Shown here: one piece after another, positions 1 through 42,184 of the stretch
Layout of the letters: each line of letters begins with the position of its first letter
How positions within the stretch are numbered: position 1 is the stretch's first letter
DNA from: Conoideocrella luteorostrata
Lineage: Eukaryota; Ascomycota; Sordariomycetes; Hypocreales; Clavicipitaceae
Assembly (NCBI GenBank): GCA_032433595.1
Contig: JASWJB010000184.1
Span: 1-64,000 of the forward strand
Length of the DNA stretch: 64,000 bases
Direction of reading: 5' to 3'
Program-made: the position numbers and the translations under genes
Notes under the pieces: model-generated
The model's input: the letters and a program-made list of their open reading frames with translations, nothing else
Database searches by the model: none
What the model was told of the DNA's origin: nothing

Positions 1-444
1 ATATATTTTATATATTTTATATTTTTTAGTCGCTAAGGCATTATCTCTTGCGGAGTTAATGCCACCTCGATGGGCTCAGTTAAACTGTCCCCCGCTTGCC
101 CCTCTAGCTGCCTCAGGCGCGATGAGCCTTTTTGAAGGGAGGGGCAGCGGCCTTTGGCCCCAAACGCACCACTGAGAAGTGGCCTTGTTGCCGTCCCACC
201 ACCCACCACACCTGGACGTTTATTGCCGTGAACGCCCTGACATTAAGATGAACTGAACAATACGACACGCGTCTTCATGCGGGAGACGAACTACGTGACC
301 CGTTGACAGCGTAGTTAAGTTAGCCGTGAAGGGACAAGTAAATTATTCGATAGCCATTCATTTTCAATCTCGGATTATTAGCCCTAAATGTCATCATTAT
401 CAATATTATCTTTCTCCATGATAATACTGAGCGTCTAAACTGCA
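1..444. other. AT-rich left edge, no gene seen
   Basis: The first 30 bases are a TATATTTTA-type run. After that there is no open frame with protein-like character and no recognisable RNA gene. The missing 5' exon of the following oxidase relic may lie here, but I could not identify it. Confidence 0.4.
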
Positions 445-1178
445 CGGCTCAGCTACTGTATTGTGAGCATCGCACTAGTCCTAGACATTACCAACGGTAT
501 GGCATCTAAACTTACTTTGTCAGCAGCGCCCACCCAAGATGCTGTTCATTACCAAGTGACAAAGTTCCACCGAGGTTTTGGGGATAAAAAACAATATACC
601 AAGGAGATCCTTCTCCAGACCTCGACAAAGCATGGAAGAGTTTGTTTAACGGTATGTTTGATCTCTTCTATCCAACCTCATCGCTTGAAGGCTAATGCTT
701 TGCTTTTGACATCGTCACCCAGACGATGGTATAACCAGGTTATCTGGAGAGCAAGCTAGACTCCTTCCGAATCGCACACACCAATTCATAGGAGATGAAG
801 GTTATTACATAGCCGAGTTGGCTATCTTCCATCAGCTCCATCGTGTGGTATGTACGACTCCCTTCGCCACAAATGATTGGTTGTTGACATGGCGGCCAGA
901 ACGCAATCAGAATAGCGTTATTCAAGGATCACTATCAAAAAGTCCTCAGCCCAGAGGAATTCGACGATTTGCAAGGTTCTTATGGGCGTGACCATATTAG
1001 CAACTGCCTAGATGCCGCCCGGGAGGCTGTAATATGTGCGTCTGACATTAGTGTCATTACTTGGCAGTGGAATGGTGCTGTTGGAATCTCGTCAAGCACA
1101 ATGAGAAGCACGGAGCGAGTCATGTGGTCACCTTTCGGCCACCCTATTTATACGACGATAGTAGGCTTCGTATCTTGA
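445..1178 (+). pseudogene. UstYa-type (DUF3328) oxidase, frameshifted relic
   Basis: The UstYa family are membrane-anchored oxidases that crosslink or oxidise fungal RiPP peptides (ustiloxin, phomopsin, asperipin pathways). Segments seen in order: a hydrophobic N-terminal stretch with no ATG (about 450-490); HYQVTKFHRG; then, in another frame, IYQGDPSPDLDKAW (from 594); an intron at 652-722; GDEGYYIAELAIFHQLH; an intron at 848-899; and a last exon 900-1178 with a HISNCLDAAREAVICASDI block and ITWQW. The frame breaks in the A-run at 586-591, as if one base were lost. Both family HxxHC motifs are damaged: the first reads HQLHR and the second HISNC. The introns remain spliceable and most of the body is conserved, so decay looks recent. 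It lies about 590 bp upstream of the repeat-containing precursor on the same strand. Assignment to the family is firm; whether the frameshift is real or an assembly error is open. Confidence 0.8.
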
Positions 1179-1769
1179 CTTGTTTTCTCCCTCTTAGATA
1201 GACAGAGACTTATTCAATGTATTGCATTTTAAAGCCGACGATCTAGATCGTTGCACAACCCCGCGCAACCCACCTATATCCATGGGGGGTGGATGTTGGT
1301 GACGAGTTCACCGAGACATGCATTAAGACGTGCTATGCTAGTCAACAGGTCCACAAAGTGGATATTTAGAAACGTTCAACATCCTTTATATGGGATGCTG
1401 ATAACGCAGTACGCATGTTGGGTGCACAATAGAACCAGGTCAGCTGCGGAGCATGCCGATATTTGTCGCATTAGTCCTTTGCTTACACAGGTAGTGATAC
1501 GATGGATGATCTCACAAAGCTCAGCCCCGCATTCAAGTGCTTTTTTCCAGCCGAGTCTCGCACCGGCTGCTAGTTTAAATCAACTGGGGCATCTGCCATA
1601 CCTCGTCACAAAACTGTGAAGCAGTCCCTTGAGATTCACTGAAATAGCCAAGTCACCCATCCACCGACCCAGTCCTTTTTTTTCGGTTCGAAAAAGATTT
1701 CAAGATTTAACAACATTCCCATTCTACACAAAAGCGGCTTATCAGACACCATATCGATTGTCAGCCAAC
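1179..1769. other. Intergenic region upstream of the precursor gene
   Basis: An open frame at 1251-1619 starts on a non-ATG codon and has no recognisable domain, so it is not called. The stretch probably holds the terminator of the oxidase relic and the promoter of the precursor at 1770. Confidence 0.4.
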
Positions 1770-2033
1770 ATGAAAAACCACTTCCTTGTTGCTCTGCTCT
1801 CCATATCCGGATTTGTCAATTCCCGGCTTGTAGTGGAGCGAGTAAGTTGAACATACGAGACATTGCGCGTGTGAAGATTAATTCTCACCTAGGATACCCT
1901 TGACGTTCTCAATGGCAACAGCGGTTGGACGCCGCCTCCCGACCGTAAGAGAGATACGCTCGACGTTCTCAATGGCAACAGCGGTTGGACGCCACCTCCC
2001 GACCGCAAGAGAGATACGACTGGAAAGATCTGA
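1770..2033 (+). CDS. Candidate Kex2-processed RiPP precursor with two identical repeats
   Basis: Two exons, 1770-1841 and 1893-2033, with a 51-nt intron (GTAAGT...CTAG), give about 70 residues. Residues 1-18 form a signal peptide (hydrophobic core FLVALLSISGFV, end VNS). A short leader RLVVER follows. Exon 2 is two copies of a 20-residue unit that begins DTLD, contains NGNSGWTPPPD and ends in RKR, then a short tail DTTGKI. Lys-Arg at each unit end is the classic Kex2 cleavage site, as in UstA-like (dikaritin) precursors. The two units differ at four bases, all synonymous (ACC/ACG, CTT/CTC, CCG/CCA, CGT/CGC), which argues that the peptide has been under selection. Trp is the only aromatic residue and there is no Tyr, unlike ustiloxin-type cores. 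The upstream UstYa relic supports the assignment. The peptide product is unknown. Confidence 0.8.
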
Positions 2034-4768
2034 ACAACGATAAGAGATCTGTAGTTCAAAGTTACTTCACTTATGGAACAGTCTAGAGTACCGGCTATTT
2101 TTTCATCCATGCTCGGGTCGTATATGCTCATTATGTCTCTTTGTCCATAGTTAGTCTTTGGTACTTGAATATGTTGCATTCTTGTCGGTCGCTTTACAAT
2201 TATCAAGCACGCTCATTACAATCTTTGTATTCTAAATTCCCACTAACTACTAAAGAGAATTGACCCACTTCATGATAAGTGCTGCAGTTGTTGCGTAGAA
2301 TATAAGCCCTAATTACAGTTACTGAGCGGTCAATTGTTCCAACAAAAGAAGGTCGCTAATGGGCTCTTAGTTAGTGAAGTGAGGAGAGAAAGGCGAACGG
2401 ATAGAAACATTATGCTTGTTCTTATTTCTCCTTGAGCTTGTGGATTATAACCAGCGCTAATTACAGATGCCCCAACATCGGTCTTAAATAATTATAGTTA
2501 ATTTTGTTTTTAAAACTCATTACTACAGCCAGAATCTTCACATGTGTAAGTGGATTAATCAGGCTACAGGTGGAACCTACAGGACCCTTTTTCTGTAGTG
2601 TGTGGCTAGATAACAACAACAATAATAATTACAGTACTGATAATCTTGCGAATTCTTGCACGCAACGCTCAAGCCTTACTTCAATATAACTATAAGGATT
2701 TTATAGTTCAAGTCGTAGTCTACTTCAAATTATGTTTTACGATGAAATAAGTTTCTGCCCCATGTTCTGCCGTGTCCAGCACATCCTCCAGTCAGGCGAG
2801 GAATAACTCCCGCCGCTACGTGAGATAGTCTAATATCTACAGGCATTCAGAACCTTTAGCAAACATTTGGGACCAGCAGAATTGCCATAATACCGAAATT
2901 CCAGATGCCGGCACTATTCGAGGAGCTTATCCCGAGTAAAACATTATGTGCATGGCAGTAGCGACGATTTTTGAGTGGAGATGGTTCTCTTAATAATGGA
3001 ACGGTCGCAGGACGGAGAAACGTGGGATACACGGCCAACAGCCAGTTATGAAACAAGAGTGTTTGACATCTAAGAGCGATGATACCATAAGAAAAGTTAT
3101 TTACTTTTTTGCCCGGTCAGCTTGGTACGGAGTAAAGGGAAAATCCGATGGGGATCATGATGTCGACTCCTTCACAGAACTCTGACTCCAATAGATGCTA
3201 TGACGTATACGGAGTAGGGGGCTAACTACCTAGCGATGGTTCCTATTTCACGAAGCGAAACCAGAAAAGGAAAAGGGAAAGGGGGTTTCGGAGCTGATAT
3301 TGGCCTGAACTTTAATTGTTTCTGTCGAGAAGTGCTCGGCGAGTTTGTCTGCCTTGTCTTTTATCAGCCTGGTGGGTCGCAGGCTAGCACGAGGCCAAAG
3401 CTCTACTAGTGTATGAGACTCTGGCCGTGCAATTCTGACTTGGCAGCATTAACCCCCAGGGATGGCACTTAGGGTCGGCTCTCTACATAACCTTTAGGAC
3501 GTGGTAATGGGCGGGGATGTCATGAGAAAGCATGAACCTATTGATCGGGTATGAATGCGCATGAGATGTGGCCTCTAGTTACGATATTTCTCATGCGCGA
3601 ATGAGGATTGGCAATTGAAGATGCAATCAAGGCCTTTGTGCTGTCTTCTAGTCCCTACAAGTCGCATTCGTTAACATCTACAAAAAAAAAATTCCGAAGT
3701 TCTGTTTATTATATGAAAGACATTGTTAATCCGAAAAATTTAAAAGCTCCTCGAGACTTTGCCCTGTTTGGCGTGCAATAGTGTTGCCCGTCCATTCCTG
3801 TCGACATTGTAGGATTACGAAGGTCTCAGAATAACGCGCTTTCATTTGGTCAGCCCCAAGGCGGGGTCTGGAAAGGGCGCTTTCTAACCCCTGAAGGGGT
3901 TAACCTTAGCTTCTGCGACAATACTACAGTGGGCCCCCAATTATTCCGAGCCAAGAAACAACCAAATCGTGCAGTGTGGTAGCTCGGAACTCCGGCTGCG
4001 GTAATGTACTTCGTACAAGTAATGTGACAAGGCCAGTGCATTGTGTTTTAAGATCTAAATCTCAGCAAAAGCGGTACCAATAGATTCCCTACTGCAACCA
4101 CACAGGCTCCTACTAGGTGCTCCGTACGTAGAATCCAATCTTGGTCTTACTTTCACGTTTTATTTTCTCCTGGCGAGGGTATACTAAACTTTGCTAATGC
4201 ATCAACTCACGCTATCGCACCTCGTTTTGAAAACATCCTCAAAATGACACAAAAGGAGCCGTTTCATAATACAGTTCAATTACTCTATGTTTTTCATGTG
4301 GAGGAAGGCTTGGTCTTCCCCACAATTTGCGCCGCGAAGCCATGCGACACAGGCAAGAAGTGTGGGGCGGGTGACGATGATCACGACGGAAACGACCGAA
4401 AGAGTCCGGACGAACCGCACGTCTTGCTGGTGGTTTTTTTTTTTAAAAAACTGGGCGGGAGTGAATCCCGGGGTTTTGTTTTGGTTCCTTTTGCGTACAG
4501 ACCTGCGACTGATAGCTTGCCATGAGGCTGGGCACTGAAGTCATGTTTCAATATTGGTAGCAGCGCACGTTTCTCTGTTTCATCAGGACCTACCGGTAGC
4601 TCTTGCCCCCTTTTCGCATCTTTTCAGTCAGTGCCATTTTTAATTTAATAAACTCCGAGGTGCCTCTTGTTCTCTAGAGCTCTTACGAAGTTGTAATTTC
4701 CCTCTCATCCACGCAGCTCGTATCTTACTCACCGCTCTGACAGATTCTGTACTATAATTTCCTCCAAA
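2034..4768. other. 2.7-kb gene-poor stretch
   Basis: No coding gene was recognised. The stretch holds an A-run near 3681, TACGGAGTA motifs near 3127 and 3209, and one copy of a pogo-like terminal sequence at 3924-3991, listed separately. Short open frames here have no domain content. Confidence 0.45.
3924..3991 (+). repeat. Pogo-like terminal sequence, copy A
   Basis: Starts TACAGTGGGCCCCC and continues to a block CCGAGCCA...AAACAACCAAATCG...GCTCGGA. The 14-mer AAACAACCAAATCG is identical to copy B near 18.35 kb in the opposite orientation. A CAGT start next to TA fits terminal inverted repeats of pogo/Tigger-type Tc1-mariner elements. No transposase or partner end was found nearby, so this is a solo end or a MITE remnant. 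Confidence 0.5.
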
Positions 4769-12047: not shown

Positions 12048-15000
12048 CTAACAACCAGTAGCTCCTTTTTCCAGGAGTATTTGCGCTATATCTGCATGTC
12101 CTCTATCCGAAGCAGCCTGAAGAGCATTGCCAAAGGGTCCACCTTGAGCATTGACATCCGCTCCATTGTCTATTAGCATCTGTACAATCTCGATATGTCC
12201 TCTACCCGAAGCAGCCTGAAGAGCGTTACCAAAGCGTCGACTTTGAGAATTGACATCCGCCCCATTGTCTAACAGTATCTGTACAGTCTCGACATGTCCT
12301 GTAATGGAAGCAGCCTGAAGAGCGTTGCCGAAGTATCCACCTTGAGCATTAACATCCGCTCCATTGTCTAACAGCATATGTACAGTCTCGACATGTCCTC
12401 TATTTGAAGCACGCTGAAGAGCGTTGCCGTGGGCTTTACTTTGAGCATTGACATCCGCTCCATTGTCTAACAGTATCTGTACAGTCTTGACATGTCCTCT
12501 ATCCGAAGCAGCCTGAAGAGCGTTGCCAAAGGGTCCATCTTTAGCATTGACATCCGCTCCATTTTCTAACAGCATCCGGACAATCTCTACATATCCTCTG
12601 TAACAAGCAGCCTGAAAAGAGCTTTTATCTCGCGCGTGAACGTCCGCTCCGTTGTCTAACAGCATCTGTACAATCTCGACATGACCTCTTCTGGATGCCC
12701 AACCTAGTGCATTCGTCCCCGTTTCGTCTGGTTGATTAACCATGTCCCTATTTCTAAGGATCAATCTTTGAAGCACATTTTTATGCCCATTAAAAGCAGC
12801 AAGACAGATAGCATTTACTTTATGCTGAAACCTGTATTGCATCACCGCCGTCCAGAATATGTGATACCACGTCGCAAACCGTGCACTAGTGACATCGTAA
12901 AGTTGATCAATCCGCGTTTCCATTCTTGACTCTGCAAGTGAAGGCATCGCTCGCACATGGTCCGGCCAATACTCCGCGGAATACCGTAGGAAACTTGGGT
13001 CATCCCTGTCACTCCAGTACGACATGGAATGTGTATCATCCAGTAGTAAATAGTTGATACATATCTCCGACAATAATGTCTCAGTCTCGCTCTGTTGCAA
13101 AAACCATTCTTGCTCATGTGTAAGTAGAAACTCCCTCGCAGTCTGATGGATTAGGTAGACCCTTGAGTTATTGATGAAAACGAACAGTCCACATAACCGA
13201 CGGATCTTTGTATCCAACCCTTTCGGATTAAGACTACATTTAGCTGCTGCTCGAGAACCGGGGGACTTGGCTAACCCCAAGGCCATCGCCATCTCCTCGA
13301 TCGTTAAAGGTCGTCGCGCGCCGACAATGATGCGGAGGATCGTTCTCACATCCGACGCTTTATTGGATGGCACTCTGTCTAAAATTTTCGCATATGCGTC
13401 GCTGACTGAGCTAGGAATTAGCCGAATTGATTCCTGTTCAGGCTGAAGACTGTTCCCAAACACGGTATAAATATCATTTATAGCCAAATGTAGCCACAAG
13501 TAAGTGCGATGTTTCATTTGTAGAAGTTGTTGCTCTAGCCGTTCCTGTGTTTCAGGTGCTAGTTGTAGGCTTTCCCCGAGCTTATTTACTTGGGCCTTAA
13601 TGACTAGGTTAATTTCTTCATGGATCTGGTTATTTTCTTCCTCCCCGCGCACATGGATATAAGGAAATAGTTGAGCAGCCCGGAGGAAGCCCTCCTGGAT
13701 TTCGTCATATGGACGACTAGTAACAAGGAATTTTAGCCAGTTTTTCCGGGTTAATAAATAGCTTTGGGTATAAAAGTGCTCTAACTTATTTAGTAAATGA
13801 GCGCGATCGCTTAATCGACATTCATCCAAGGCATCAAAAATACAAATTGTGTTAGAGAACGCGACGTCGGACATTGCGGCCTTGAGAACACGCCAAAGTT
13901 CATCTGCTTCTTGCTGTATTTTCATCCCGTTTTTTTGCCAGCACGGCAAGGCGTGCCGTAGGAGATGCGGTTGTTGGTCAAACAGTTGATGAAGAATAGC
14001 ACATAAGGCTGTTGTAAAACTATTTTGGTCGTCATTATCCTTGAAGAAAAAGTAGCAAATTGTCGCCGATGTAGACGCCTTTAGATCTATGTCGATGAGG
14101 GATTTTGCAAGAACAGATTTGCCACATCCTGGATCAGCCGATACCCATAGAAGATCGTTATGGTCACTCTCCTGCCAAGCAAGGTAGTGGGAGTTCTCAA
14201 GTATCCATCGACACGTTCCCTGGACGCGGTCTGGATTGATGTTTTTATGTTGCTCATATGTGGATGTCTTGAATGCTTGGTGGCACTCCTGCTGCTCTTT
14301 CGTTAATACTAATGCGATCTGCTCGCGATGATGATCTTCTCTTTGGTGAAGCGATCTTTCAATGGTCTGGTTGAGCTCCTTAAGGTCACCTGTGGGTAGA
14401 ATATAAATATTTACTCATGGACAACTATTGGGAAATGTAGACTATTGCTGGCTAACTAACCTGAGAGAACTTCACTTATCTTCTTTTCAGCCTCTACTCT
14501 ATTTGGGGCAATTCGACAGAGAAGATCTTTCGCATAAGCCGACGCCGTCATTGCTGCATAGCCCTGCCACTCTTTGTTCTTATGCGAGTCCGAGTAGTCA
14601 CAGATTCCACGAATTACAAGACAAGGAAAGTGGTTTACTAAGCCAGCCGACTCCATTTCGAAGCACAACACGTCTTTCTCCGCTGCAAGAGCATCCCGTA
14701 TCGTTGCATCCATCATCAATTGGTTTGCCGACGCAACAAGGCCATAATGAACTGCTGGATCATCGTCGTCCTCCGTACGACTTGGCCTCGATTGCAATTG
14801 TGACGGGTCGTCAGGGCAGGAATCGGCACACACCGCATCGTTATCTTGAGGATGAAGAACATTAGGCAGATACAGTCTATCGGTGTTGGCATCCGGGCGC
14901 CTGTATTTCTTTCGTAGCCTTGGCTTTCTCTCGATTGCTTTGTCAATAGCCTGCGCCAGTTCGTGACCATCACTCTCGTACTGTGCCATCAAGCCATTGA

Positions 15001-15448
15001 CCGCCGCTCGTAAAATCGCGGGCGGTTGATTTAAGAAACCTTTCTGCTGAAACTTTTTGCCTTGTATGGACTCTCCAAAGTCGTACTGAAGCACGCCCCC
15101 TTTCCCGCCGCCAGACGCGCTGACGACTACATCGCCGAGGCGAATGTCATGCTTGGGGCTTGGCGCACCGCCAGCTATGCCAACCATCAGACCGATGCGT
15201 ACGTTTGGAAAGCTGTGCAACATGTCTCTCCCCACACTTGTTGCAGACGTGAGGCCGTACTCCCCGTGAGGGAGGACAGCAATTACAACGTTGTGCTTCC
15301 CAATCCTCCCGAGCGCGTAGTCATTATTATCGTGGGTCGCAACATGGTCGGGCGCTTCGTGCTTTTCGTCGAGGAAGGTTTGGGCAGCGACGTACTCGGT
15401 GGCGATGGCACAAATCCAGCCAACTGTGTAGTCGTGGGGATCCGGCAT
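12048..15448 (-). CDS. NLR-like receptor: nucleoside phosphorylase - NACHT - ankyrin repeats
   Basis: Two exons, 15448-14461 and 14389-12048, with a 71-nt intron, encode 1109 residues. Residues 1-300 are a nucleoside-phosphorylase-like domain ([54 protein letters not shown]). The linker leads to a GTCRWIL block and a NACHT NTPase with P-loop DPGCGKS at about 415-421 and Walker [11 protein letters not shown] at 511-520. From about 845 there are eight ankyrin repeats; repeats 4-8 are near-identical ([11 protein letters not shown]...[13 protein letters not shown]). This is the standard layout of fungal STAND/NLR proteins implicated in non-self recognition and heterokaryon incompatibility. The sharp internal repeat conservation is typical of fast-evolving recognition domains. 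The frame is intact and all NTPase motifs are present, so it should be functional. Confidence 0.9.
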
Positions 15449-16737
15449 GCTGATAAAGGATCGGATGTGGGGACACTTGTGACGACGACAACAATCTGAG
15501 TCTGATGCTAGGTATGTAACAATTCACTCAGCTGCTATCTCAGATTCTGCTTCATTCACAAGGGACGGCACGTTGGGCATGGTTTTTGTTGGGATTTTCT
15601 CTCCTCCGTAAGCACACTCAAGGCAATGGAGGCAGCCAATCGTTGGGTTTTGGATTAAGCGCCCACGTACGGAGTGACAATAAGGCAGCCAATGACAGCC
15701 AGAACGTCCCCAGTTGAGGGGAGGAGTCCACCACCGTGGCTGTACGGTTGTCTGCCTAGGGATAATGGAATCTGCCTTGCCATCAGTTGGATCGCTCCCA
15801 TATGGTGTCATGAGGGGTATAGGTTAATGGAAAGCATTAAGAGTTCTAAACACCAGCAGTGGATGCAGCTCCTCCCCTGTCCCTGGCTACAATTTCTGGT
15901 AGGTACACCGTCGCAGCTGTGTTATGTTTTGTGATACGGTATTTTGAATCGACGAACGTACTGGCTCTGGCAGTTGGCCCCGTATCTGAGCTGCCCAGCT
16001 GAAGAGGCAGCCAGGGGCCGGGACGGCTTTTCCAGCTGCACGACGATCTGCTTCTTGGTTGATAGCCCACTGCAATTTGAACAATCAGGCCGTTCAGACA
16101 CAGGCAGCCACGACTGAAATTTTGACTCCCCTAGCTCGGACTGGATCCCACAATTTGTCAGAAAAATTAACCGCTTGACCACTGGAGCAAAAGTGTAGGC
16201 CCTACTGAACTTTTTCCACTGGCTGTAACAGGTCTTATACCCCGCGCAACAAAATTACCCAAACGCCCGCAGCGTAGCTGAGAGGTCAGCATGCACATGA
16301 AGCCAACCTACCACCTATACTCCGTACAAAGGTGCTAATACTAGCTAAATATATAAATAATACTGTTGGGACCCAAATATTTGTCCGCCCTCACTTAATT
16401 ACGGGCCGGGACTAGTTGTGCACTAACAAATCATGGGTAGTAACCACCATCTATTGCTACAGGGCGCCCGCGTAATGGCGTTAGGCAAGTAAAGGTTAGG
16501 TCATGATTAGGAGGCCCAAAAATATCTGGTCAGACATATGTGTCGTAAGCAAGGCTCGCTAGCCGATTGTTGTAGTGGGATACATCTGTGCTTTGCATAT
16601 ATATCAGACAGCGTTGCAATTTGTGTAGATAGCTCAGTGTTTTCTCGCCGTGCAGGCAATACAGCTTGAATTAATCTATAGTGCCGTTTACGATTGGTCT
16701 GCTAAATGATGCTGGCTCGTAGATTCCAAGAATGATT
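15449..16737. other. 1.3-kb stretch without a recognised gene
   Basis: Contains the promoter of the NLR-like gene and TACGGAGT/TACTCCGTA motifs near 15668 and 16319. Open frames are short and lack domains. Confidence 0.4.
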
Positions 16738-23069: not shown

Positions 23070-24818
23070 ATGGCTGAACCAACCGTCAGCTTCCCCTACT
23101 GTTCGGCGGATGCCACCCTCGTGGATTACGACGAAATACCCGGCAGCAACCTCGTCTCGCAGGAAGGGGCTCCCAGTTTTCTGGCATCGAACAAGACTCT
23201 CTGGTGGCCCAAGGGGAAGAAGATCAAGGTCAGATTCCTCAACGGCTCTCCTACGGTGCAGCAGAAGGTCAAGTCCTACGCGGAGACCTGGGAGGAATAC
23301 GCCAACATTGACTTCCAATTCATTAAAGAAGGCGACGCGGATGTCAGGGTCGCCTTCAAATGGTACGTTTTCTTGGCCCAACGTACACTCTTGTGAATGG
23401 GGATTCTCACCCAGAGCAGGGTCAAACCAGGTGGTGAGGTCGATCTGGGCACATGGTCCCAAGTCGGCACGAACGCGAAGACAATGGTATTGAGTAAAGA
23501 CCAGCCTACCATGAACTTTGGCAATCTTGACGACAACAGTCGTGAGGAGGACTTCTGTCGCGATACCACGCACGAGTTTGGGCATGCCATCGGCTGTGTT
23601 CACGAACACCAGGCTTGGGCGATCCCTTGGGATGAACCGCGCGTCATCGCAGATTGCAAGAGGATGTACAAATGGTCCGAGAGCCAGACACGCGCGCAAA
23701 TCATCAAACCCGAGGTTGACCTCAACCGGCTCACCAAGTCCAACTTTGACAGCAACTCCATCATGTGCTACTACTATCCGAAGGAGTGGACCAAGGACCA
23801 CTCTTCGGCGCCGTTCAACGTGAAGCTTTCGGCCACGGACAAGAGCTTCATCGGCAAGATGTACCCGTTCCAGACGCGCAACAGCGGCGAGCTAAGCATC
23901 TACCCCGAGATACGGAATTGGAACCTGCCTGTCCCTCTCAATTCCAAGGAGATTACCTTCACCCCGCCCTACAACGTCGCCCCTCGCATGGCGATTGGCT
24001 TAAAGTCTCTTGACATTAGCAATACCGCCAACATTCGGGTCCGCGCAGCGGCTCAAACAATCACTGAGGATAAATTTTCTGTTAGTATGGACACTTGGGG
24101 CGATACGCAGCTCTTCAACGCGACTTCGACGTGGATAGAATTTGAGCGCACCAGCGATGCAGAATATGAAGGTGAGTATCACCCCCCACCCCCCAACAAC
24201 AAAAGAATCAGAGCATCTGGTGTACTAACGACACCACCTTTTGCAGTGGGCGAGTTCAATACGCTGGATACACGGGGTCTAGGTCAGCTCCAGACTCCGG
24301 ACAAGCAAGGCGTGCGCCGAGATACGGAGCACTTCGACTTCCCTGAGGGCAAGTACACCGAGCCACCCAATGTCCTCGTTTGGCTCAGTGCCATGGATAT
24401 GGATAAGACACACAACTGGCGAGTCCGAGCCAAGGCCACGACCGTCACCACTACCGGGTTCGATCTCGCCATTGAGACATGGGGCGACACCGTGCTCTAC
24501 AGTGCGACGGCGTCATGGGTCGCGTATCCAAAGAACAGCCAGGGAGCCACCGGCGGCAGGGTCAGCACCGAGGACTTGCGACAGTGGTTTCCCGCCGTTG
24601 CCAATAATTCGAAGAAGGTCAAGTTTCCCGCAAAGTTCTTTGACAAGGTGCCCAAGGTCTTCATCGCCATCAGCGCGCTGGATATGGACTCTTCGGTCAA
24701 CCTCCGGGTCAAGGTCTCTGCCGACAAGATCGACGCCTATGGATTTACGTGGCACGGCGATTCGTGGGCAGATAGCCAGCTGTACACGGTTAGCGCAGAC
24801 TGGGTAGCTTTCGGTTGA
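23070..24818 (+). CDS. Astacin-like zinc metalloprotease with three H-type lectin domains
   Basis: Three exons, 23070-23362, 23420-24171 and 24247-24818, with introns of 57 and 75 nt, encode 538 residues. The zinc site HEFGHAIGCVHEH (about 149-161) fits the metzincin pattern HExxHxxGxxH plus the extra Glu of astacins. A downstream SIMCYYY is the Met-turn with its usual Tyr. Three C-terminal beta domains follow, each with the signature of H-type lectins: about 205-275 (GLKSLDISNTANIRVRA, TWGDTQLF), 310-380 (WLSAMDMDK, TWGDTVLY) and 415-485 onward (AISALDMDSS, SWADSQLY). H-type lectins bind GalNAc. There is no signal peptide, so it is probably intracellular or released by another route. Acceptor choice for intron 1 (GAGCAG) keeps the Trp of AFKW; a site 4 nt upstream is possible. 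Confidence 0.88.
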
Positions 24819-40476: not shown

Positions 40477-40873
40477 GATGCAGAATTAACGCGACTGCGA
40501 AAAGAGTAAGTTTGTTGCGACGAGGAGGGTCTTGAGATTTATAAATCAACTTGCGTAAGGGCTGCGCCACGCTGCGTCTCTCAACTTGTCTTGGCTCACA
40601 CACAATCCATCTATCCGGGGATCCCGACTACACAGCTGTAGATATAGCCAATCATGGGTGTCGGTCGCAAAAGATCTACCCGATCGAGTATAGGCCGGGC
40701 TTAAGCTAATCGGAGTGGATGTCGCGGACCGTTCAACGCTACCATAATGACGATCAAGTATAAGTATAATGTTGAGGCCGGCGATGTGAGATGAGCATTA
40801 GACCATCATTCCAGACTCGAGCATCATCATCTTCCTTCTCCAAGTCCTCCTCGTCGCATTACTTCCACTGAAC
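40477..40873. promoter_or_regulatory. Shared divergent promoter of regulator and hydrolase
   Basis: 397 bp between two divergent start codons. Contains the pair CGGG/CCCG around 40616-40695 and several CGG/CCG triplets (GACCG, TCGGAG) that a Zn2Cys6 protein could bind. No single perfect paired CGG site stands out. The assignment rests on gene arrangement only. Confidence 0.4.
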
Positions 40874-42184
40874 ATGAAGTTCTCCGCTTACACCGGCTCT
40901 CTTTTTGCGGTATTGCTTCATTCCCGTCTTGCCGCCGGAGCTACCAACAAAAACGATGGCGGTCCGCCTACTTTTCAACTTGGAAACGACACCGCCTTCA
41001 ACTTTGAATACCTTGTCGCCCTCCAAAACTCCCTGTCTGGCGGATCGGACATTGGTCCTGTCCTTGGCGCCGTCAAGAACATCAAGCCTGGCGACTTTGA
41101 CTCCTACCATGAGGAGTTCTACAGACTTGCCAACGCAACCAAGGCTCGGGCTGAGGATCCTGAGAATGCCTACGACTCCATCAATGTGAGAGACTCGTGG
41201 TTCTCTGCCTCTCATTACTACCGACGAGCGGATGTCTATATTCATCGCAACTGGAGCAACCCGCTCATCAAGACCGTATGGGACGAGCAGACTGCCGCTT
41301 TTGACAAGGCAATTGCCGCTTTGCCCATCCCCGGCAAGCGTGTCCAGATCCCCTCCGCTAAGGGTTATCTCACAGTTGAAGCAATCTGGTACTCGGCCTC
41401 TGAGAACCCAGATGCAAAGCTGCCAACAATGATTGTCGGTAATGGCTTCGATGCTGCACAAGAGGACTCGTACCACTACTACTGCGCGGCCGCTCTTGCT
41501 CGCGGCTGGAACTGCATCACCTACGAGGGTCCCGGTCAGAATACAGTACGCCGAACGCAAGACCTTGGCTTTATTCCTGAGTGGGAACGTGTAGTCACCC
41601 CTGTTGTGGATTATGTTCTTTCGGAGAAGAAGCAGGTGGTAGACGAAAATCGCCTTGTCCTAGTTGGCAATTCCTTTGGCGGCTATCTGGCTGCTCGTGC
41701 AGCGGCTTTCGAACCCCGCCTGTCCGCGGCCATCCTCGTCGGCGGAATGTGGGACTTATACGCTGGTTATTCGACGCAGATCTCTGAAGAACTCATCTCC
41801 ATCTACGAAGCCGGCAACCGCACCCAGTTCGACGATGAGATCCTCACTCTACGCGATGCTGGGAAGCTCCCCACCGAAACTGAATGGGGTTTGGACTACG
41901 GTCTGTGGGCGTTCAAGACTCACTCTCCATCCGAGTTTTTCGACCTCACTAAGCAGTACAAAATTGAGCCTGTTGTTCATCAGATCGACATGCCCGTCTT
42001 TGTAGGCGACGCTGAGTATGAGAGTATCTTCAAGGGTCAGGCACAGAAGGTCAAGGATGCACTAGGCGAAAGAGGTACTTTCCATGAGTTTGAAGGGGTT
42101 GCCGGGTATCACTGCCAGTCGGGGTCGCAGCAGGAGTTGGCGCGCACTATCTTTGCGTGGTTGAACAAAACTCTGGGGAAATGA
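40874..42184 (+). CDS. Secreted alpha/beta hydrolase (Ayg1/FrsA-like)
   Basis: A single exon of 436 residues. MKFSAYTGSLFAVLLHSRLAAG is a signal peptide. The N-terminal cap region (about 40-135) has the HYYRRADVYIHRNW block. The hydrolase core has GNGFDAAQEDSYHYYCAAALARGWNCITYEGPGQ and the nucleophile elbow LVGNSFGGYLAARA with Ser267. An Asp-containing strand (MPVFVGDAEYESIF) and a late His (VAGYHCQSG) complete the triad. This is the DUF1100/FrsA-like family, which in fungi includes C-C bond hydrolases of polyketide pathways such as Ayg1; those are usually cytosolic, so a signal peptide is notable. The substrate is unknown. Confidence 0.87.
   Translation: MKFSAYTGSLFAVLLHSRLAAGATNKNDGGPPTFQLGNDTAFNFEYLVALQNSLSGGSDIGPVLGAVKNIKPGDFDSYHEEFYRLANATKARAEDPENAYDSINVRDSWFSASHYYRRADVYIHRNWSNPLIKTVWDEQTAAFDKAIAALPIPGKRVQIPSAKGYLTVEAIWYSASENPDAKLPTMIVGNGFDAAQEDSYHYYCAAALARGWNCITYEGPGQNTVRRTQDLGFIPEWERVVTPVVDYVLSEKKQVVDENRLVLVGNSFGGYLAARAAAFEPRLSAAILVGGMWDLYAGYSTQISEELISIYEAGNRTQFDDEILTLRDAGKLPTETEWGLDYGLWAFKTHSPSEFFDLTKQYKIEPVVHQIDMPVFVGDAEYESIFKGQAQKVKDALGERGTFHEFEGVAGYHCQSGSQQELARTIFAWLNKTLGK

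What the first reader, a model, noticed from the sequence alone, without database searches (positions are those of the whole stretch)
445..2033. Candidate dikaritin-type RiPP locus: two-repeat Kex2 precursor beside a UstYa relic
Seen directly: a signal peptide, a 51-nt intron, two identical 20-residue units each ending in Lys-Arg, and an upstream gene with UstYa family blocks. Known: UstA-like precursors plus UstYa oxidases define fungal dikaritin RiPPs. The unit has Trp as its only aromatic residue and a Pro-Pro-Pro run, unlike the Tyr-based ustiloxin, phomopsin and asperipin cores, so a new peptide type is possible.
Basis: partly seen in the sequence, partly recalled or inferred. Interest (0 to 1): 0.88.

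Follow-up and report, generated by a model that had tools for sequence, protein, structure and literature searches.

The report
Insect fungus peptide gene, broken oxidase
An insect-killing fungus carries a small gene for a secreted peptide that in a related fungus appears to sit beside the kind of enzyme that chemically reshapes such peptides, but here that enzyme gene has decayed, so the peptide is probably an orphan of a known type of fungal peptide pathway.

Summary
At 1770-2033 (+) lies a 70-residue precursor with a signal-like leader, a 51-nt intron and two identical 20-residue units ending in Arg-Lys-Arg. The only other protein found is H634G_09869 of Metarhizium anisopliae, 86% identical but with ONE unit. 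The next locus tag, H634G_09870, on a contig of the same listed length, is an intact UstYa (DUF3328) oxidase, a close relative of the broken UstYa pieces at 357-1073 here. In this genome the oxidase looks dead: both HxxHC motifs are altered, the frame is broken and the C-terminal part is missing or faint. No close intact copy was found elsewhere in the assembly. Best reading: an orphaned, undamaged precursor of a Kex2/UstYa-type pathway that works, if anywhere, in Metarhizium. UstYa-linked cores with Trp and Pro are already reported, and this genome holds another mostly Trp-only one, so this is a new member of a known kind. The single-core Metarhizium precursor is the more unusual part: mining that asks for three repeats would miss it. 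No transcript, peptide or chemistry was seen.

The parts
6..100 (.). dispersed repeat at the contig's left end, a likely reason why the contig stops here
   Evidence: 39 other places listed at 88-97% identity (189 candidates, only 40 scored), 3 of them within the first 14 bases of other contigs.
357..461 (+). UstYa remnant: transmembrane-helix piece
   Evidence: tblastn with M. guizhouense P0005; the clear part of a longer gapped match reads FIFNLGLLALNVIIINIIFLHDNTERLNCTAQLLY.
499..591 (+). UstYa remnant: next piece (frame 1), up to a frame break
   Evidence: 499-594, 75% identity to H634G_09870; 77%.
588..650 (+). UstYa remnant: piece in another frame (frame 3), overlapping the end of the previous piece
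   Evidence: 81% identity to M. acridum P0004, 67% to H634G_09870.
728..847 (+). UstYa remnant: exon with the first HxxHC motif, altered to HQLHR
   Evidence: 77.5% identity to M. acridum P0004, 82.5% to H634G_09870; both relatives read HQLHC.
900..1073 (+). UstYa remnant: exon with the second HxxHC motif, altered to HISNC; little or nothing of the C-terminal part follows
   Evidence: 84-86% identity to three Metarhizium UstYa proteins, which read HISHC. Only the Apiospora aurea alignment runs on, to 1145, with 54% over its whole length.
1770..1841 (+). precursor exon 1: signal-like leader
   Evidence: hydrophobic core LVALLSISGFV.
1842..1892 (+). 51-nt intron, phase 0
   Evidence: the database model P0001 skips exactly this stretch.
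1893..2033 (+). precursor exon 2 with stop codon: two units and the tail DTTGKI
1893..1952 (+). core unit 1, DTLDVLNGNSGWTPPPDRKR
1953..2012 (+). core unit 2, identical protein, 4 synonymous differences

Best explanation
This is the precursor gene of a Kex2-processed, UstYa-type ribosomal peptide pathway whose own oxidase has decayed in this genome. Inferred working order in the ancestor and in Metarhizium: the signal peptide sends the precursor into the ER; Kex2 cuts after Arg-Lys-Arg; basic residues are trimmed, leaving a Trp- and Pro-rich peptide of about 17-18 residues (DTLDVLNGNSGWTPPPD or so); and the neighbouring membrane-bound copper oxidase of the UstYa family modifies it, most plausibly by oxidation or cross-linking at the only aromatic residue, Trp. 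In C. luteorostrata the core was duplicated (or the second unit was lost in M. anisopliae) and the oxidase broke, so the peptide is now released linear, or not made at all. Shown: the gene model, the homologue, the consecutive locus tags and the decay. Inferred: secretion, cleavage, trimming, modification and order of events.
For: Precursor anatomy and an identical database gene model. One-unit homologue in M. anisopliae: 43 of 50 aligned residues identical, with leader, Arg-Lys-Arg and DTTGxI tail kept. H634G_09869 and H634G_09870 are consecutive tags with the same listed contig length, 465,503. H634G_09870 and the M. acridum relative carry both HxxHC motifs; the M. guizhouense model skips the first-motif exon but keeps the second. 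The window piece groups with the three Metarhizium UstYa proteins at 97/97 support in a 21-row tree (17 of the 30 proteins were used). The two units differ only at synonymous third positions. In 6 of 20 stretches read around other UstYa matches of this genome, a repeat-precursor candidate lies 410-1622 nt from a UstYa match. Published: DUF3328 gene counts peak next to KEP genes (PMC7329392 section 7), and alanine at the HxxHC residues abolishes activity of a DUF3328 enzyme (PMC12435403, passages).
Against: No transcript, peptide or product was seen. Adjacency in Metarhizium rests on consecutive tags and equal listed contig length; I did not see that DNA. UstYa proteins also work outside RiPP pathways (PMC12048977, passages). 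No tyrosinase or methyltransferase matched in the 15 ORF pieces scanned to the right, and the left side is beyond the contig end. The core has no Tyr. Only 2 proteins of this precursor family were found. In 14 of the 20 stretches around other UstYa matches the script found no repeat precursor.
Confidence: 0.72

Rival explanations
1. A linear secreted peptide (signal, effector or antimicrobial) made by Kex2 alone; the UstYa gene next door is incidental or serves something else.
For: Most KEPs have no DUF3328 gene nearby (6120 of 7878, PMC7329392). The units stay identical here although the oxidase is broken. W content is similar with and without DUF3328 neighbours, 20.5% and 24.5%.
Against: The consecutive-tag pairing in Metarhizium, and the relic's last clear codon is 696 nt upstream of the ATG here: the same neighbourhood in two genera is unlikely by chance.
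Confidence: 0.17
2. The whole locus is dying here: the precursor is intact only because the oxidase broke recently, and no peptide is made. This overlaps with the best explanation and differs only on present-day activity.
For: The oxidase piece is still 84-86% identical to Metarhizium, close to the 86% of the precursor, so decay may be recent. The contig ends in a dispersed repeat just upstream.
Against: The precursor shows no damage, and its two units differ only at synonymous sites, although those changes may predate the loss.
Confidence: 0.35
3. The peptide is still modified in trans by another UstYa of this genome.
For: 57 exon-level UstYa matches in the genome. The best match to H634G_09870 outside the window, on C532, lies near another precursor with Trp in every unit.
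Against: That best match is only 38% identical to H634G_09870 and falls outside the Metarhizium group in the tree, on a long branch.
Confidence: 0.1
4. Artefact: a chance open frame over a DNA repeat, the real frame lying elsewhere.
For: Other frames are open across the repeat, and one antisense frame keeps 19 of 20 residues between the units.
Against: A separately annotated species keeps this frame, leader and tail. 0 of 100 resamplings gave such a repeat.
Confidence: 0.01

Closest known systems
DUF3328-linked KEX2-processed repeat proteins (KEPs), including type P-3 with W and P (PMC7329392: section 7 and passages seen)
   Same: Precursor with signal-like leader, Kex2 sites after each core, UstYa-family gene adjacent, Trp and Pro in the core as in P-3.
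   Different: Two units here and one in M. anisopliae. P-3 has 7 members, 4 with and 3 without a DUF3328 gene nearby, from Fonsecaea, Cladophialophora, Galerina, Psilocybe and Coprinellus; its letters are only in a figure, so I could not compare them.
Ustiloxins, phomopsins and asperipin-2a (dikaritins)
   Same: Precursor logic and the class-defining DUF3328 oxidase in the neighbourhood.
   Different: Their cores cyclise through Tyr; this unit has no Tyr. No tyrosinase or methyltransferase among the ORF pieces scanned on the right. The oxidase is broken in this genome.
Victorin (PMC9233826, passages)
   Same: A pathway without a Tyr linkage: cyclisation uses a core Phe.
   Different: Different core, multi-core precursor, chlorination; no sequence relation tested.
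Parmeliaceae RiPP clans R1 and R2 (PMC12048977, passages)
   Same: UstY genes without a recognisable repeated precursor, for which the authors name a single-core precursor as one possibility. H634G_09869 looks like a concrete single-core case.
   Different: Different fungi and accessory genes; relationship not tested.
Ascomycete alpha-type pheromone precursors
   Same: Signal peptide plus Kex2-spaced units.
   Different: The unit starts with Asp-Thr rather than the STE13 X-Ala or X-Pro dipeptides described in PMC7329392 (passage). It also has no Cys; that such pheromones often carry Cys is recalled, not from a call.

Membership tests
Dikaritin RiPP locus | N-terminal secretion signal on the precursor | tested here: met
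   (hydrophobic core, by eye and hydropathy; no signal-peptide predictor was used); kept in M. anisopliae.
Dikaritin RiPP locus | Core units separated by Kex2 sites | tested here: met
   Two units ending Arg-Lys-Arg; one unit with the same site in M. anisopliae.
Dikaritin RiPP locus | Multiple repeated cores (typical rather than strict) | tested here: inconclusive
   Two in the window, one in M. anisopliae.
Dikaritin RiPP locus | Adjacent working DUF3328/UstYa protein with two HxxHC motifs (class-defining as reported in PMC12048977, passages) | tested here: not met
   In the window the gene is there but broken: HQLHR, HISNC, frame break, C-terminal part missing or faint. Met in M. anisopliae as far as consecutive locus tags show.
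Dikaritin RiPP locus | Tyr in the core for the cross-link (ustiloxin, phomopsin, asperipin) | tested here: not met
   The unit has Trp as its only aromatic residue.
Dikaritin RiPP locus | Accessory tyrosinase, methyltransferase, peptidase | tested here: inconclusive
   No tyrosinase or methyltransferase among 15 ORF pieces scanned on the right (not every ORF was scanned). One ORF 39 kb away (40802-42181) matches alpha/beta-hydrolase families, Peptidase_S9 among them at 26.4 bits over a cut-off of 22.6. The left side is off the contig.
Dikaritin RiPP locus | Oxidatively cross-linked product | not testable with these tools
   Needs mass spectrometry.
KEX2-processed repeat protein (KEP) | Signal peptide, internal repeats, Kex2 sites between repeats | tested here: met
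   The 250-secretome survey asks for at least three repeats (PMC6339444, passage), so this gene would fall below its threshold.
Alpha-type mating pheromone precursor | STE13 X-Ala or X-Pro dipeptides at the start of the units | tested here: not met
   Units start Asp-Thr; no Pfam match for exon 2 at E 1.

The most novel reading that the evidence does not exclude
A small family of one- and two-core precursors with a Trp-Thr-Pro-Pro-Pro core, paired with one branch of UstYa copper oxidases, makes a Trp-modified or Trp-cross-linked peptide in insect-pathogenic Clavicipitaceae. Such single-core precursors would be the kind that repeat-based mining misses and could explain some UstYa clusters that seem to lack a precursor.
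Probability: 0.3. Interest if true: 0.7.

Novelty: new member of a known kind. Interest (0 to 1): 0.5.

Why it matters
It joins a new Trp/Pro core to a definite UstYa oxidase in Metarhizium, a genus used in biological control, and gives what looks like a concrete single-core precursor beside a UstYa gene. That offers a testable answer to a question raised for lichen UstYa clusters, where no repeated precursor could be found (PMC12048977, passages). The pair of species, one with an intact oxidase and one with a dead one but an intact precursor, is also a natural comparison for what the oxidase does to the peptide.

Tried and rejected
Chance repeat or wrong frame: rejected, although one antisense frame keeps 19 of 20 residues. 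Alpha-pheromone: rejected because the units lack STE13 dipeptides. A second copy of the precursor in the genome: none by protein or DNA, one match each, the query itself. A close intact copy of the oxidase elsewhere in the assembly: none found; the best match to H634G_09870 outside the window was 38% identical (40 candidates scored, 30 matches). A neighbouring cluster on the right: none recognised in 15 ORF pieces scanned. A solved structure for the oxidase: none (best E 0.62, a chance match). Spurious intron hiding a second unit in M. anisopliae: exact removal of one unit by a canonical intron needs AGGT in the unit, absent in both window units; the Metarhizium DNA was not seen, so this is not excluded there. 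Published mention of six locus tags (H634G_09869, H634G_09870, MGU_08681, J3459_018083, QQS21_008246, JDV02_008781): none in the held library. Broader paper searches listed no paper on this peptide by title or start of abstract; their full texts were mostly not read, and supplementary tables of KEP catalogues could not be opened.

Full report
What is there. The window starts at the first base of contig C184 of a 46.4-Mb genome in 620 contigs. The database protein matching the feature, P0001, is QQS21_008246 of Conoideocrella luteorostrata, an insect pathogen in Clavicipitaceae whose published draft is Illumina-only, polished, 47.39 Mb in 864 scaffolds (PMC12352038, part 1 of 2 of the text read). 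That this is the window's species is inferred from the protein identity and the similar assembly size. The precursor gene is 1770-1841 plus 1893-2033 with a 51-nt intron, exactly as in P0001.

Is it more than chance. The two 60-nt units are the only direct repeat longer than 14 nt found in the first 5 kb. They differ at 4 sites, all synonymous third positions in this frame. Of the six frames only this one keeps 20 of 20 residues; one antisense frame keeps 19 of 20 and the other four 16 of 20. About 23% of single changes would be synonymous, giving p near 0.003 to 0.006 for four of four, on a simple count. A repeated 12-mer ending in KR/RR was seen in 0 of 100 resamplings of the window.

Relatives of the precursor. 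A search of 5.8 billion proteins with exon 2, E up to 10, returned 2 of 2 candidates: the gene itself and H634G_09869 of Metarhizium anisopliae BRIP 53293. The Metarhizium protein has a very similar leader, one unit (D to G before RKR) and the same kind of tail; 43 of 50 aligned residues are identical. No other copy was found in the own genome.

The oxidase. One window exon (900-1073) found 7 of 19 candidates, among them H634G_09870, the next locus tag after the Metarhizium precursor, with the same listed contig length of 465,503. With H634G_09870 as query, 30 of 139 candidates passed E 1e-5, from Metarhizium, Cladobotryum, Apiospora, Purpureocillium, Podospora, Schizophyllum and others, all listed with the UstYa domain. 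In a 21-row tree (17 of those 30, four rows of this genome) the window piece sits with three Metarhizium proteins at 97/97, and nearest to M. acridum at 95/77, on 58 columns only. H634G_09870 and the M. acridum protein have HQLHC and HISHC; the M. guizhouense model lacks the first-motif exon but has HISHC. The window has HQLHR and HISNC. It also has a frame break between 499-591 and 588-650. The C-terminal part conserved in relatives had no match in the first 6 kb with the Metarhizium proteins at E below 0.1; only the Apiospora aurea alignment runs past 1073, to 1145, at 54% overall, so at most a faint remnant is left. In CctR, a DUF3328 hydroxylase, alanine at the conserved His and Cys residues abolished activity (PMC12435403, passages). 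The window copy is therefore almost certainly dead. The polished Illumina data make a sequencing error an unlikely cause, though the contig end is near.

Surroundings. Bases 6-100 belong to a dispersed repeat with 39 other places listed, 3 of them at the starts of other contigs (capped list). To the right, 15 ORF pieces scanned with Pfam gave no tyrosinase or methyltransferase; one ORF at 40802-42181 matched alpha/beta-hydrolase families including Peptidase_S9 at 26.4 bits over a cut-off of 22.6. The other UstYa genes of this genome are a useful comparison: in 6 of the 20 stretches read around UstYa matches a repeat-precursor candidate was found, each 410-1622 nt from a UstYa match, with units such as DKTVEDYFIGADKR, SADESYLPNKR, VDGTNNQAGWGKR, EIDVADAFKR, VEPDRHQSYLKER and RQCYNWIKR (the place of the fifth is approximate, and its unit ends in KER, not in a dibasic site). 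In 14 of 20 none was found. The third has Trp as the only aromatic in 8 of its 9 units, the first unit also holding a Tyr, so a Trp core beside UstYa is not unique to the window locus.

How it most likely works. By published accounts of the pathway (PMC7329392, PMC9233826, passages), the precursor enters the ER, Kex2 in the Golgi cuts at dibasic sites, and UstYa proteins oxidise the core. For this precursor that is inference. The first unit follows a single Arg rather than a dibasic site, so its N-terminus is less certain than that of the second. With the oxidase dead, C. luteorostrata would release a linear peptide or nothing.

Compared with what is known. DUF3328 genes lie near 22% of 7878 KEPs, with counts peaking at the adjacent position; 65.6% of the DUF3328-linked repeats contain Tyr and 20.5% contain Trp, and type P-3 combines W and P, with a DUF3328 gene near 4 of its 7 members (PMC7329392 section 7 and a passage). 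So the locus belongs to a known kind. What is less usual is the small number of cores, one in Metarhizium, below the three-repeat threshold of one survey (PMC6339444, passage), and the contrast of intact against broken oxidase between two genera. The locus in the window is filed as a remnant of such a pathway, not as a working dikaritin cluster, because the class-defining enzyme was tested and is not intact.

Limits. No expression or chemical data were seen. The tree row for the window is short. Twelve UstYa stretches of the own genome could not be read.

Noticed in passing
L017 1323-1826 (-), own genome C532: Repeat precursor with nine near-identical units around VDGTNNQAGWGKR, Trp the only aromatic in eight of them (the first also has a Tyr), 1.6 kb from a UstYa match; the oxidase there is the best match to H634G_09870 outside the window (38%).
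   Followed up: partly
L013 5798-6163 (-), own genome C54: Repeat precursor with eight units of the VEDYFIGADKR kind, the ustiloxin/phomopsin-like YxIG core, 610 nt from a UstYa match.
   Followed up: partly
L016 6716-6928; L020 4515-4703; L022 about 3000-3500 (-); L023 3286-3555 (-): Four more repeat-precursor candidates near UstYa genes with different cores (SADESYLPNKR; EIDVADAFKR; VEPDRHQSYLKER; RQCYNWIKR with Cys, Tyr and Trp).
   Followed up: partly
window 12048-15523 (-): Two adjacent ORFs, a PNP_UDP_1 phosphorylase domain and an NPHP3_N/NACHT-like region with ankyrin repeats, looking like one fungal NLR-like gene.
   Followed up: no
window 23397-24818 (+): ORF with an HEFGHAIGCVHEH metalloprotease-like stretch (motif recognised from memory) followed by H-type lectin domains, three stretches.
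   Followed up: no
window 3917-4014: About 100-nt stretch, parts of which match 36 listed places in the genome at 74-93% identity (capped list), probably a short dispersed repeat.
   Followed up: no
window 900-1073: In the tree the window's UstYa piece falls inside the three Metarhizium proteins (with M. acridum, 95/77) rather than beside them; with 58 columns this could be noise, or a sign of transfer between genera.
   Followed up: partly
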